From positions 1-17,252 of the forward strand of contig MNYV01000056.1 in assembly GCA_001873285.1 (NCBI GenBank): a stretch of DNA of 17,252 nt. Direction: 5' to 3'. Each line of letters begins with the position of its first letter. The first letter of the stretch is position 1. Shown here piece by piece: positions 13,735 to 16,289 of this stretch. The position numbers and the translations under genes were made by a program. This DNA is from Nitrospirae bacterium CG2_30_53_67. GTDB lineage: Bacteria; CG2-30-53-67. The notes beneath the pieces were generated by a model. That model made no database searches. It was not told the DNA's origin and saw only the letters and a list, made by a program, of their open reading frames with translations.

Positions 13735-13752
13735 AAAATTATATACCATCTC
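13735..13752 (+). repeat. Left copy of the 18-bp direct repeat flanking repeat element 1
   Basis: AAAATTATATACCATCTC here and AAAATTATATCCCATCTC at 14050-14067 differ at one base. They bracket the element, as a target-site duplication would. The last six bases overlap the conserved left end of the element (CATCTCC), so the duplicated target may have already resembled the element end. Confidence 0.65.
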
Positions 13753-14048
13753 CAAAAGAGTGTGCGTAAAACATCAGGGTTCAAGGGGTCAAGGATTCCA
13801 GGGGTCAAGTGAAATGCTAAAAACATAAGGGGCCGAGTGTCCTATGGTTACGCTTCGCGTGTCCCGTTTTGCTCTATACTTGTCGTCTGCGACGGCTACT
13901 ACACTAAGGCATCCTGGGGTCAAGGGCCCCAGTGTTTTTTTCTAGAGATTTTGCTTGCGTTTCAGTATTTCACTTGAATCCTTGACCCCTTGGCCCCTCG
14001 ACCCCTTGGGTCCTCGAAACTTTTTTACCCACTAGATGGGAGAAGAAC
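13747..14048 (+). mobile_element. Repeat element copy 1: MITE-like, non-coding interior
   Basis: The ends match copy 2 at 16006-16271 in the same orientation: left end CATCTCCAAAAGAGTG followed by runs of GGGGTCAAGG type and AGGGGTCAAGTGAA; right end ACTTGA...CTTGACCCCTTG, TCCTCGAA, TTTTTACC and GGAGAAGAAC. Left and right arms are imperfect inverted repeats of each other over about 80 bases (for example TCAAGTGAAAT left, ATTTCACTTGA right). The interior (about 13815-13960) is unrelated to that of copy 2 and has two tight hairpins and a terminator-like structure. No transposase is encoded, so it must be moved in trans if mobile. Similar GGGTCAAGG repeats occur around four-helix-bundle genes in environmental genomes, from memory. 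Confidence 0.7.
13914..13941 (+). terminator. Terminator-like hairpin inside repeat element 1
   Basis: CTGGGG (13914-13919) pairs with CCCCAG (13927-13932) around a seven-base loop, followed by TG and seven T (13935-13941). No rightward gene precedes it, so it would end only an RNA made from the element interior. Part of the stem derives from the GGGGTCAAGG repeat, so chance is possible. Confidence 0.45.
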
Positions 14049-14049
14049 T

Positions 14050-14067
14050 AAAATTATATCCCATCTC
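14050..14067 (+). repeat. Right copy of the 18-bp direct repeat flanking repeat element 1
   Basis: This copy matches 13735-13752 at 17 of 18 bases. It starts one base after the conserved right end of the element (GAGAAGAAC). Confidence 0.65.
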
Positions 14068-14082
14068 ATCGTCATTCAACAA
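14053..14082 (-). promoter_or_regulatory. Ancestral mfd promoter, now separated from mfd by the repeat element
   Basis: On the minus strand TTGTTG (14077-14082), an 18-base spacer and TATAAT (14053-14058) point toward mfd across the element. The TATAAT is part of an 18-bp direct repeat whose other copy (TATAAT at 13738-13743) sits 32 bases before the mfd ATG without a good -35 box (CGCACA at the right distance). Before the insertion one promoter would have served mfd at normal distance; now transcription must either cross the element or use a remade promoter at its left end. Confidence 0.45.
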
Positions 14083-14204
14083 GAAGGAAAACGATCAAAT
14101 TCAAGATGGAAAGAACCAGAGGAGAAAAATGCCTGAACCTGATGCTGTATGCTGTGAATGAGAGCGGGAGAAGATAGCGTGTTATAAAGAAACCGATATG
14201 CGGA

Positions 14205-14750
14205 TCAGATCTCTTCAAGGAGGAGCTGTTTGGTCCGGTAAAGGGTCGTTTTGATGGAACCCGTGGACTTTCGCGTCTCTTTTGCGATCTCTTTGATGCT
14301 CAGACCGTCGAAATGTTTTTTTAAGAAGATCTCCCGGCTTTCAGAGTCGATTTTTGCAAGCTTTTTATTGCACGCCAGGAGAAATTCCTGGTATTCGATT
14401 TTTGAAAGGGGGGTATCGTTTTCCATATAAAAGTTTTCAAAATGGCTTTCTTCTGTCTCCTGAACGGCTTGGATTTTACGCCTCTTGCTTCGGAACCAGT
14501 TATGGACCGTATTTTTTGTAATACCGTAAATCCAGCAGAGAAGCGAAGACTTGCCTTCAAAATGCCCAAGGGATTCGATGATTGAGATAAAAACTTCCTG
14601 GGTGAGGTCTTCGCTGACCTCATGGTCTCGAACCTTCAGGAAAATCGTGTTGTAAACCTTATGGAAATAGGTATTGTATAAGGAATCGAAGGCTTCCCGG
14701 TTCCCGGATAGGATATTCTGAATTAATGCTCGCTCGTTATGACTCAACAT
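14205..14750 (-). CDS. ECF-type RNA polymerase sigma factor
   Basis: This is a 181-residue two-domain sigma factor. Region 2 (about 20-92) includes FDSLYNTYFHKVYNTIFLKV, the core-binding and -10 segment EDLTQEVFISIIESL, and CWIYGITKNTVHNWFRSKRR. A linker follows at 93-121. Region 4 (about 122-178) holds the helix-turn-helix DGLSIKEIAKETRKSTGSIKTTLYRTKQLL that reads the -35 element. No anti-sigma gene lies downstream: the next 155 bases have no credible frame before repeat element 1. It may be an orphan, or its partner was lost. There is no ribosome binding site before the ATG, and a sigma-54 promoter at 14763-14779 would start the mRNA about two bases upstream of it. By eye it is more AT-rich than mfd. 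Its group and regulon are not recognisable. Confidence 0.85.
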   Translation of the reverse strand: MLSHNERALIQNILSGNREAFDSLYNTYFHKVYNTIFLKVRDHEVSEDLTQEVFISIIESLGHFEGKSSLLCWIYGITKNTVHNWFRSKRRKIQAVQETEESHFENFYMENDTPLSKIEYQEFLLACNKKLAKIDSESREIFLKKHFDGLSIKEIAKETRKSTGSIKTTLYRTKQLLLEEI

Positions 14751-14762
14751 AAAGATCTATAA

Positions 14763-14779
14763 AGCAATTAATATGCCAA
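14763..14779 (-). promoter_or_regulatory. Sigma-54 promoter of the ECF sigma gene
   Basis: The minus strand reads TTGGCATATTAATTGCT: TTGGCA, six bases, TTGC, T, the exact spacing of a -24/-12 promoter, with both GG and GC present. The projected start is near 14752, two bases before the ATG at 14750, consistent with a nearly leaderless transcript and with the missing ribosome binding site. The AT-rich surroundings raise the chance of a random match. Confidence 0.55.
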
Positions 14780-14972
14780 TAAATTCAGGCAAACCGGCAA
14801 ATATCACCCAACTTCTTATATTTATTGGAGAAATAAATTTATAATCATCCGGTCTCTTGTCCAAGATCGGTTTTGGCCCGAAGAGGGGGAAAACGAAATA
14901 AATATTGTTTTACAAAGAGTTATCATTCTTGAGATCCATTTTCAACCCTGATGGGTTCAAGGGAAGGAGTGT

Positions 14973-15005
14973 GAAAATATTTTCCCTTTTTGTGAAAATA
15001 TTTTC
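14973..15005. promoter_or_regulatory. Two identical 12-bp palindromes 21 bp apart, enhancer-like
   Basis: The perfect palindrome GAAAATATTTTC occurs at 14973-14984 and again at 14994-15005, within a 21-bp tandem repeat (GTGAAAATATTTTC plus a pyrimidine run). A third, decayed unit starts near 15012. Spacing of 21 bp places both sites on the same DNA face. They lie about 220-250 bp upstream of the ECF gene's predicted start and just after the CheZ-like gene stop, fitting either upstream activator sites for the sigma-54 promoter or an AT-rich binding region for another protein. Confidence 0.5.
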
Positions 15006-15027
15006 TCTTTTTGTGTAAAAAATTACC

Positions 15028-15849
15028 CTATTTTAAAAATTCGGAGAGGAGCCGGTCCACTTCTTCCTGCTGGATGGCATCTTTTTTCTCCCCTTGGAGC
15101 ATGTCGAGCATCTGTTCTCCCCGTTTGATGTTTTCATCTTCAGGATTTTCTTCTTTTCGGAGCCTGATCCCGAAGTTGAAAAGGATAGAGATCAGCTTGT
15201 TTTCCACGTCTTCCTGGAGTTTGACCACCTGATGAAGTTTTTGGCCGGATCGGTCCTGAGCGGAGAGGGATTCCGCCATTTTTGTCAGATCGACGCCGCT
15301 TTCGGCGCTGTTGGTCTTCAACTCATCTATATTGTTGAAGAGATCGCCTTCTTGTTTTCTCATATCTTCCAGCGTCTTTTTAATGAGGTTAAATTTATCC
15401 GCCATATCTTCCTGACTTGCCTTGACCTTCTCCAGGAGATCCATGGTGTTGCTGCTCCCTTCATTTGCAGCCGCAAGGATCGTGGAGAGCTTCGCGGCTG
15501 GTGCAGGGATTCCCTTGACGGGAAATTGAGTCAGGTCCTGTCTCATGCTGTTCACCAGGTCTTGTTTGAGACGAACGATCTCATCAGACACCTCTTTGAC
15601 CTTGCCGAGAAGTTCACGATACATCTTTTCATAGGAGACCTTTGGAGGGGTTTTATTCTCAAAAAACCCGACCAGCTCTTTTGCATCGTAGAGCGGTATG
15701 CGTTCATCTTTATACTGGATCTGCCTGGGGATCTGCAGGGGGAAGTTCTGAGGCGGTAATATCGTATACAACCCGTCCAGCCGGATGGCTGTCTTCTTTC
15801 CGTTGACGTTGGCCAGAACAATGTAGCGTGCATTCTCTCTATTTTCCAT
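15028..15849 (-). CDS. CheZ-like phosphatase with a CheW-like N-terminal segment
   Basis: This is a 273-residue cytoplasmic protein. Residues about 7-63 (RYIVLANVNGKKTAIRLDGL, then PRQIQYKDERIPLYDAKELVGF) resemble the first half of a CheW fold. Residues about 70-235 are long helices like the CheZ hairpin, with AQDRSGQKLHQVV at 197-209; D199 and Q203 match the spacing of the catalytic Asp and Gln of E. coli CheZ (D143, Q147), which removes phosphate from CheY-P. The C-terminal EEVDRLLSEFLK (262-273) resembles the CheZ tail peptide that docks CheY. No other chemotaxis gene is in the window. The start has AGGAG ten bases upstream and a good promoter at 15938-15966. The CheZ part is fairly sure; the CheW part is tentative. 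Confidence 0.7.
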   Translation of the reverse strand: MENRENARYIVLANVNGKKTAIRLDGLYTILPPQNFPLQIPRQIQYKDERIPLYDAKELVGFFENKTPPKVSYEKMYRELLGKVKEVSDEIVRLKQDLVNSMRQDLTQFPVKGIPAPAAKLSTILAAANEGSSNTMDLLEKVKASQEDMADKFNLIKKTLEDMRKQEGDLFNNIDELKTNSAESGVDLTKMAESLSAQDRSGQKLHQVVKLQEDVENKLISILFNFGIRLRKEENPEDENIKRGEQMLDMLQGEKKDAIQQEEVDRLLSEFLK

Positions 15850-15937
15850 TGGGGATCTCCTGATTTATAAAGGGATATTTTTATGGGGCAGCCTTTTCCC
15901 TTCTCTTACCGGCCAACAGGAAAAGGAACCGGTATTC

Positions 15938-15966
15938 AATATACACGCGGCCCCGGGTTGTTGCAA
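15938..15966 (-). promoter_or_regulatory. Sigma-70 promoter of the CheZ-like gene
   Basis: On the minus strand TTGCAA (15961-15966), a 17-base spacer and TATATT (15938-15943) are followed by a leader of about 80 bases to the ATG at 15849. Repeat element 2 begins about 40 bases further upstream. Confidence 0.6.
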
Positions 15967-16005
15967 GAATAAATCATAGAGAACCCCATGTTTTTAAAAG
16001 TAGAT

Positions 16006-16271
16006 CATCTCCAAAAGAGTGGGTGAAAACATCAGGGGTCAAGGGTTCAAGGATTCCAGGGGTCAAGTGAAGTGCTCAAGTACGACAAGGAGTTAAAGGT
16101 TTGGCAGAAGTTTTATCAATGATGCTTGAAAATTTACAAAACAACAAAAAGATTTCCTGATGAGGTTGAGCGGATACTCAAGGCGCTGATCAAATCACTG
16201 GAAAACGAACACTTGACCCCTTGACCCCTGGAATCCTCGAACCCTTTTTACCTACTAAATAGGAGAAGAAC
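16006..16271 (+). mobile_element. Repeat element copy 2: carries a four-helix-bundle gene remnant
   Basis: It has the same ends and orientation as copy 1 at 13747-14048: left CATCTCCAAAAGAGTG and repeated GGGTCAAGG units to AGGGGTCAAGTGA; right ACTTGACCCCTTGACCCC, TCCTCGAA, TTTTTACC and GGAGAAGAAC. The interior is the decayed gene at 16072-16224. Flanks share only a loose match (TTAAAA...TA...GAT...CAT on both sides, with gaps), so a target duplication is uncertain. It lies 18 bases upstream of the -35 box of the rlmE promoter. Confidence 0.7.
16072..16224 (+). pseudogene. Four-helix-bundle (S23 / 23S rRNA intervening-sequence type) protein remnant
   Basis: From a GTG at 16072 the frame reads LKYDKELKVWQKFYQ, a TGA stop (16120-16122), then CLKIYKTTKRFPDE joined directly to EVERILKALIKSLENEH, ending at TGA 16222-16224. 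Intact members of this family (about 115-125 residues, from memory) start with a KYDKELKVWQKSYQLCLKIYK-like segment and end with a EVERMLKALIKSLEN-like helix, with the conserved SIPSNIAEG region between. That middle, about 70 residues, is missing, and one codon has become a stop, so the gene is dead. Such genes sit in IVS elements of 23S rRNA and in intergenic repeats in many environmental bacteria; their function is unclear. Confidence 0.75.
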
Positions 16272-16289
16272 CTTAAAAATAAGATAGCA

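What the first reader, a model, noticed from the sequence alone, without database searches (positions are those of the whole stretch)
13747..16271. Two same-orientation repeat elements with shared ends and different cargo bracket the ECF and CheZ-like genes
Both copies share about 65-base ends rich in GGGGTCAAGG, but one carries a dead four-helix-bundle gene and the other a structured non-coding segment. Modular cargo within constant ends is unusual for a MITE. The direct orientation would allow deletion of the 2.3 kb between them.
Basis: partly seen in the sequence, partly recalled or inferred. Interest (0 to 1): 0.7.

Follow-up and report, generated by a model that had tools for sequence, protein, structure and literature searches.

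The report
ISL3-type MITE carrying dead IVP cassette
The two repeats are copies of a small jumping element present about a hundred times in this genome, whose inside is a decaying cassette built around a four-helix-bundle gene; the same cassette design, a gene between mirror-image arrays of 7-9-letter repeats, turns out to be widespread in bacteria, which may explain what these puzzling repeat arrays are.

Summary
Confirmed and extended. The two repeats (13743-14049 and 16002-16272) are bounded insertions with ~28-bp imperfect terminal inverted repeats and 8-bp AT-rich target duplications. The draft genome has 218 matches to these ends (6 in the control) and I extracted 52 complete copies; 25 of 52 have flanks matching at 7-8 of 8 positions (shuffles: mean 1.3, max 6). 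A sister species lacks copy 2 at the syntenic site. The ends match those of an intact ISL3-family IS (Candidatus Manganitrophus; perfect 8-bp duplication), and the sister species holds a frameshifted ISL3 gene beside the same end. So these are ISL3-type MITEs, moved in trans by a transposase not found in this genome.

Inside the ends lie inverted octamer arrays around exchangeable modules: a decayed IVP (PF05635) gene, a REP-like double hairpin, other nested palindromes. More surprising, IVP genes in general sit in this setting: in 88 loci, mostly from different families, both flanks carry mirror-image arrays of degenerate 7-9-mers (61/88 above the 99th percentile of mismatched pairs). Cyanobacterial plasmids show such cassettes present or absent between homologous neighbouring genes. 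Deletion between the two window copies is possible but nothing here supports it.

The parts
13735..13742 (.). Target duplication, left side of copy 1 (AAAATTAT)
   Evidence: identical to 14050-14057; the sister species has the sequence once.
13743..14049 (+). Copy 1 of the ISL3-type MITE, 307 nt, non-coding REP-like interior
13743..13770 (+). Left terminal inverted repeat of copy 1
   Evidence: matches the ends of an intact ISL3 IS.
13776..13811 (+). Left octamer array (GGGTTCAA GGGGTCAA GGATTCCA GGGGTCAA GTGA)
   Evidence: inverted partner at 13972-14017.
13848..13917 (+). REP-like double-hairpin module (its reverse complement reads GTAG followed by a hairpin)
   Evidence: occurs without the terminal repeats in related genomes G002 and G004, and in both orientations inside other copies.
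13972..14017 (+). Right octamer array, inverted
   Evidence: I1, I2.
14020..14049 (-). Right terminal inverted repeat of copy 1
14050..14057 (.). Target duplication, right side of copy 1 (AAAATTAT)
15994..16001 (.). Target duplication, left side of copy 2 (TTAAAAGT)
   Evidence: 7 of 8 identical to 16273-16280.
16002..16272 (+). Copy 2 of the ISL3-type MITE, 271 nt, with IVP gene remnant
   Evidence: absent at the syntenic site of the sister species.
16002..16029 (+). Left terminal inverted repeat of copy 2
16034..16069 (+). Left octamer array of copy 2
   Evidence: I5, I7.
16078..16221 (+). Decayed IVP (PF05635, four-helix bundle) gene: 5' and 3' pieces, one stop, middle deleted
   Evidence: 16078-16164, E 1.7e-7; 16159-16221, E 4.7e-4.
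16210..16244 (+). Right octamer array of copy 2, inverted; in the better preserved copies it supplies the last codons and the stop of the IVP gene
16245..16272 (-). Right terminal inverted repeat of copy 2
16273..16280 (.). Target duplication, right side of copy 2 (TTAAAAAT)

Best explanation
Each repeat is a copy of a non-autonomous transposon (MITE) of the ISL3 family. Shown: terminal inverted repeats, 8-bp target duplications, high copy number, an empty site, and very similar ends on an intact ISL3 IS. Inferred: an ISL3 transposase acting in trans moved the elements; it is now lost or unassembled in this genome. The ISL3 ends enclose an IVP cassette, meaning inverted arrays of degenerate octamers around a four-helix-bundle (IVP/S23p) gene. 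The gene has decayed in every copy assembled with both ends. Recombination between the shared octamer arrays and nested insertion of smaller palindromes (inferred) turned the cassette into many interior types, which the MITE ends spread. IVP cassettes exist independently across bacteria, with 7-mer (sometimes 8- or 9-mer) arrays and without ISL3 ends, and are gained or lost between genes. How those cassettes themselves move is unknown; the most likely guess is a hairpin-forming, IVS-like selfish element in which the IVP protein binds the arms.
For: End pattern: 218 matches in G000, reversed control 0 and 6. 52 complete copies of 66-409 nt. TSD signal peaks sharply at length 8 (z 10.9; 25/52 with 7-8 of 8 matches, shuffles mean 1.33, max 6; 85% AT). 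Syntenic sister locus lacks copy 2. Intact ISL3-family IS in Candidatus Manganitrophus CP114560.1, 1,390 bp, ends GGATCTTCTCCAAAGTGAGTGGGTAAAAA and GGCTCTTCTCCCAAACGAGTGGGTGAAA, alignment scores 19.5 and 18.5 to the MITE left end against a shuffled maximum of 13.5, TSD ATTCTTTT on both sides. Sister species G001 has a frameshifted ISL3 gene, 76% identical to that one, beside GGGTCTTCTCCCAAACGAGTGGGTAGGAA. Mosaic interiors. About 22 IVP-bearing places in G000, many at contig ends. IVP flanks in 88 loci: inverted-arm score above the 99th percentile of mismatched pairs in 61 (direct orientation 6); 7-nt lag in 99/176 flank windows against 5/145 distant windows (arms listed). Present/absent cassettes in named plasmids.
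Against: No ISL3 transposase gene in G000, so the driver is inferred. 27 of 52 copies lack a clear 8-bp duplication (decay, or some rearranged ends). The copy-1 empty site is only half visible because the sister contig's left flank does not align. Module boundaries were drawn by eye and some matches are weak. For IVP cassettes in general no target duplication or transposase was found, so mobility rests on presence/absence at homologous junctions; loss is not excluded at each site, and the empty plasmids belong to related strains and genera, not isogenic ones.
Confidence: 0.88

Rival explanations
1. The octamer-IVP cassette is itself the mobile unit in this genome (IVS-like, RNA- or hairpin-based), and the outer terminal repeats are incidental flanks.
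For: Cassettes of this design exist without ISL3 ends in unrelated bacteria, and octamer arrays without the terminal repeats occur in related genomes G002 and G004.
Against: In G000 the 8-bp duplications lie exactly outside the ISL3-type ends, copies without IVP have moved as well, and interiors change while the outer ends stay constant.
Confidence: 0.07
2. REP/BIME-type repeats moved by a RAYT (TnpA_REP) transposase.
For: Copy 1 contains a GTAG-plus-hairpin module in its reverse complement, and RAYT-like Y1 genes exist in G000.
Against: In the only G000 RAYT locus that matched, the module lies inside a MITE copy about 1 kb away and does not flank the gene; the RAYT loci of the relatives had no match. 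Elements with no REP module have the same ends and duplications.
Confidence: 0.03
3. A conserved structured RNA or regulatory element, not a mobile one.
For: Both copies fold strongly.
Against: No Rfam family (only a subthreshold chance miRNA hit), no conserved position in relatives, interiors not conserved, target duplications.
Confidence: 0.02

Closest known systems
ISL3-family insertion sequences and MITEs derived from IS elements
   Same: GG-starting imperfect terminal inverted repeats, 8-bp AT-rich duplications, small size, no transposase, high copy number; ends match an intact ISL3 IS.
   Different: Interior is unrelated to an ISL3 transposase; it is an IVP cassette with inverted octamer arrays and nested small repeats.
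23S rRNA intervening sequences (IVS) with S23p/IVP gene, e.g. Coxiella burnetii (PMC4990558)
   Same: IVP gene between inverted complementary ends; the Coxiella IVS is reported to have tandem heptamers (GACAGAT) just upstream of its S23p gene and a 28-bp terminal stem.
   Different: Not in 23S rRNA: intergenic, about a hundred copies, enclosed in transposon ends, IVP gene dead.
Heptameric G-rich repeats of Xanthomonas and Nostoc (PMC4692102); cyanobacterial STRR repeats
   Same: Dispersed degenerate short tandem arrays; Xanthomonas has 70-75 inverted pairs per genome.
   Different: That paper reports no general association with mobile elements, and the terms 'four helix' and '23S' do not occur in its text; here the arrays are the arms of IVP cassettes, and in G000 they are octamers.
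BOX elements of Streptococcus pneumoniae
   Same: Small intergenic repeats with constant ends and variable inner modules (own knowledge; PMC3049150 located, not read).
   Different: No sequence relation claimed; here interiors include a gene remnant and nested elements.

Membership tests
ISL3-derived MITE | Terminal inverted repeats matching an ISL3-family IS | tested here: met
   intact IS in Candidatus Manganitrophus; relic in the sister species.
ISL3-derived MITE | 8-bp target duplication | tested here: met
   signal peaks at length 8; 25 of 52 copies with 7-8 of 8.
ISL3-derived MITE | Short, multi-copy, no transposase gene | tested here: met
   66-409 nt, 218 end matches.
ISL3-derived MITE | Empty site in a relative | tested here: met
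   for copy 2; copy 1 only partly alignable.
ISL3-derived MITE | Autonomous partner in the same genome | tested here: not met
   no PF01610 in G000 (about 95% complete draft). MITEs may outlive their partner, so this is not strictly defining.
IVS/IVP cassette | IVP (PF05635) gene between inverted repeat arms | tested here: met
   remnants in G000; general architecture.
IVS/IVP cassette | Location inside 23S rRNA | tested here: not met
   Copy 1 lies between a 1,148-aa ORF that reads as Mfd (own reading of the sequence) and the ECF gene, copy 2 between the CheZ-like gene and an FtsJ/RlmE-type gene. It is IVS-like in design, not a 23S IVS.
IVS/IVP cassette | Excision of the transcript by RNase III | not testable with these tools
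   Needs RNA work.
REP/RAYT | Cognate RAYT gene flanked by the repeats | tested here: not met
BOX-like modular repeat | Constant ends with variable inner modules | tested here: met
   A resemblance in layout only; no homology claimed.

The most novel reading that the evidence does not exclude
IVP (PF05635) genes across bacteria are the cargo of a so far unrecognised class of small selfish cassette, bounded by mirror-image arrays of degenerate 7-9-mers whose word differs from locus to locus. Such cassettes insert between genes, classic 23S rRNA intervening sequences are one special case, and dispersed heptamer arrays (as in Xanthomonas and Nostoc) are at least partly their remnants. In this genome an ISL3 MITE has captured one and amplified it.
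Probability: 0.55. Interest if true: 0.88.

Novelty: new variant of a known kind. Interest (0 to 1): 0.72.

Why it matters
The element itself is a large new family of ISL3-type MITEs that shapes intergenic DNA in one genus. The wider point matters more: a family known mainly as the 23S rRNA intervening-sequence protein appears in a shared genomic setting across bacteria, inside mirror-image short-repeat arrays, and comes and goes at gene junctions, including inside CRISPR-Cas operons. That would link two long-standing puzzles (what IVP proteins do; where dispersed heptamer arrays come from), makes both testable, and could explain why a CRISPR-association screen lists IVP (figure legend of PMC10910872).

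Tried and rejected
Rfam: nothing. REP/RAYT origin of the whole element: rejected. Octamer arrays as the true ends: rejected for this genome, since the duplications lie outside the ISL3-type ends. A first end pattern with the spacing off by one found a single site and was corrected. Same-genome IVP loci sharing one array word (simple amplification): not supported, since same-genome pairs score no higher than random pairs. Phage records: no IVP match with one query. ISL3 loci of other relatives (L166-L168) gave no comparable ends, nor did three other plasmid ISL3 loci. The IVP consensus used as a query and shown to Pfam has its middle filled in from the family, so the Pfam score of that protein is not evidence; the remnant matches lie in the parts taken from G000 copies. 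Literature: no paper in the held library was found that joins IVP genes to heptamer arrays in general; the Coxiella IVS paper notes heptamers upstream of S23p in that one case.
Full report
What was checked. The finding reports two same-orientation repeats with shared ends and different interiors at 13747-16271. Direct reading and repeat search confirm it. Refined limits are 13743-14049 and 16002-16272. Copy 2 holds pieces of a PF05635 (23S rRNA IVP, four-helix bundle) gene at 16078-16221; copy 1 is non-coding. Between them lie an ECF sigma factor (14205-14750, minus) and a CheZ-domain protein (15028-15849, minus). Both copies fold far better than shuffles because their two halves are complementary.

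Copies and ends. Searching the genome with copy 1 gave 105 matches. A pattern for the outer end, WTCTCCNNNNNNGNGGGTRAAAA with up to two mismatches, gave 110 forward and 108 reverse matches, against 0 and 6 for the reversed control, consistent with roughly a hundred elements in 2.36 Mb. From fetched stretches I extracted 52 complete elements (sequences). The consensus ends are GGATCATCTCCAAAAGAGTGGGTGAAAA on the left and, reverse-complemented, GGTTCTTCTCCCATTTAGTGGGTAAAAA on the right: an imperfect terminal inverted repeat.

Target duplications. For flank lengths 4-12, left and right flanks match far above shuffled pairing at length 8 (mean 5.44/8 against 3.55, z 10.9; next best z 3.4 at length 9). 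25 of 52 copies match at 7 or 8 positions (shuffled mean 1.33, maximum 6), and the duplicated sequence is 85% A+T. The window copies are among them: 8/8 for copy 1, 7/8 for copy 2.

Empty sites. In the sister species G001 the ECF, CheZ-like and RlmE-type genes are syntenic; alignment jumps from window 15978 to 16275 with 19 bases between on the sister side, so copy 2 is absent. For copy 1 the sister has the right flank with a single AAAATTAT and no element, but its left side is not alignable.

Which transposon family. No ISL3 transposase (PF01610) was found in G000. In G001 a frameshifted ISL3 gene lies next to GGGTCTTCTCCCAAACGAGTGGGTAGGAA. Its best annotated relative, the ISL3 family transposase of a Candidatus Manganitrophus plasmid (76% identical), belongs to an intact 1,390-bp IS with ends GGATCTTCTCCAAAGTGAGTGGGTAAAAA and GGCTCTTCTCCCAAACGAGTGGGTGAAA; these align to the MITE left end with scores 19.5 and 18.5, against a maximum of 13.5 in 1000 shuffles, and the IS is flanked by ATTCTTTT on both sides. 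I therefore file the window elements as ISL3-type MITEs. Trans-mobilisation is inferred, not shown.

Interiors. Inside the ends are octamer arrays (GGGGTCAA, GGGTTCAA, GGATTCCA and variants) in inverted orientation with an inner AAGTGAA/TTCACTT edge. Between them lie exchangeable modules: a short core, the REP-like double hairpin of copy 1 in either orientation, hairpins CCCCGTTAGAG...CTCTAACGGGG with a TGAA/TTCA repeat on both sides, other palindromes, a further nested MITE-like piece, or IVP gene pieces; about 30 orders occur among 52 copies. Some copies combine an IVP piece with the REP-like module (L041, L122). Related genomes G002 and G004 carry the REP-like module without the terminal repeats, so it is a separate repeat. 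G000 has about 22 places with IVP pieces of this type, many at contig ends, as expected for near-identical recent copies; none assembled with both ends has an open frame. IVP-bearing elements with the same ends also occur in related MAGs (Hainich L092; CG_2015-17 L095, left part only), so the cargo predates this species.

The wider pattern. A search of 290 genomes found IVP genes in 101. Reading the flanks of 88 loci, mostly from different families, showed arrays of degenerate short repeats on both sides in mirror orientation, each locus with its own word, for example cgtacgaagtacgatgtacgatgtacga upstream and gcaagtaggaagtacgatgtacgaagta downstream (reverse-complemented) in L249. The inverted alignment score exceeds the 99th percentile of mismatched upstream/downstream pairs in 61 of 88 loci; in direct orientation only 6 do. 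A 7-nt lag of at least 18/24 matches is present in 99 of 176 flank windows, 5 of 145 windows further away and practically none after shuffling. Loci of one genome do not share words, so this is not simple amplification of one element.

Presence and absence. Named cyanobacterial plasmids show the same design: Nostoc edaphicum GGGAACA arrays, Calothrix brevissima GGGTGTA arrays, Pseudanabaena AAAAGCT arrays. Related plasmids lack the cassette at the same gene junction: Picosynechococcus PCC 7003 against PCC 7002 between cas10 and cmr3; Calothrix NIES-22 against Nostoc carneum, Tolypothrix and Aulosira after an integrase gene; Nostoc edaphicum and C052 against C057; Nostoc ATCC 53789 pNsp_a against C052 and pNsp_b. 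In Nostoc ATCC 53789 pNsp_c the same junction as in N. edaphicum carries arms without an IVP gene, a parallel to the variable interiors in the window. No target duplication was recognised at these junctions.

Literature. The Coxiella burnetii 23S intervening sequence has tandem heptamers upstream of its S23p gene and a 28-bp inverted-repeat stem (PMC4990558), the same design inside rRNA. Xanthomonas, source of the only solved relative found (XCC0516, 2GSC), has heptameric arrays with 70-75 inverted pairs per genome, reported as generally not associated with mobile elements (PMC4692102). I found no paper in the held library making the general link, but subscription journals and preprints were not searched.

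Verdict. The window feature is a new, high-copy family of ISL3-type MITEs carrying a decaying IVP cassette: a new variant of a known kind. The general IVP-cassette pattern is the surprising part; the architecture is well supported here, its mobility moderately, its mechanism not at all.

Noticed in passing
L306, L307, L310 (cyanobacterial plasmids): IVP genes with their arrays sit inside CRISPR-Cas operons (between cas6 and cas4 of type I-D; between cas10 and cmr3 of type III-B), which may explain why a CRISPR-association screen lists IVP (PMC10910872).
   Followed up: partly
L013, L014, L019, L030, L118, L126: Small near-perfect palindromes CCCCGTTAGAG(N)CTCTAACGGGG lie at the inner edge of the octamer arrays, bracketed by TGAA or TTCA on both sides, as if inserted with a 4-bp duplication.
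   Followed up: partly
L126 and L079 (G001): Another nested repeat with CGTGTCGTGTC-type inverted ends and G+C-rich hairpins interrupts some elements.
   Followed up: no
L071 (C47) and L293 (C154:7030-7182): Two copies have flanks that are reverse complements of each other, probably fold-back assembly artefacts around the palindromic element.
   Followed up: no
L031 (G000:C159:7881-8195): A full-length IVP gene of a different type in the same genome, with differently worded short-repeat flanks (agtgagcag / cactgcccactgcgcac) and no ISL3-type ends.
   Followed up: partly
window 14970-15032: Three tandem 21-nt units TGTGAAAATATTTTCCCTTTT between the ECF and CheZ-like genes.
   Followed up: no
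L137 (G000:C101): A complete RAYT-like Y1 transposase gene bracketed by a different short repeat (GGGGTCAGACATTGAT), unrelated to the window modules.
   Followed up: no
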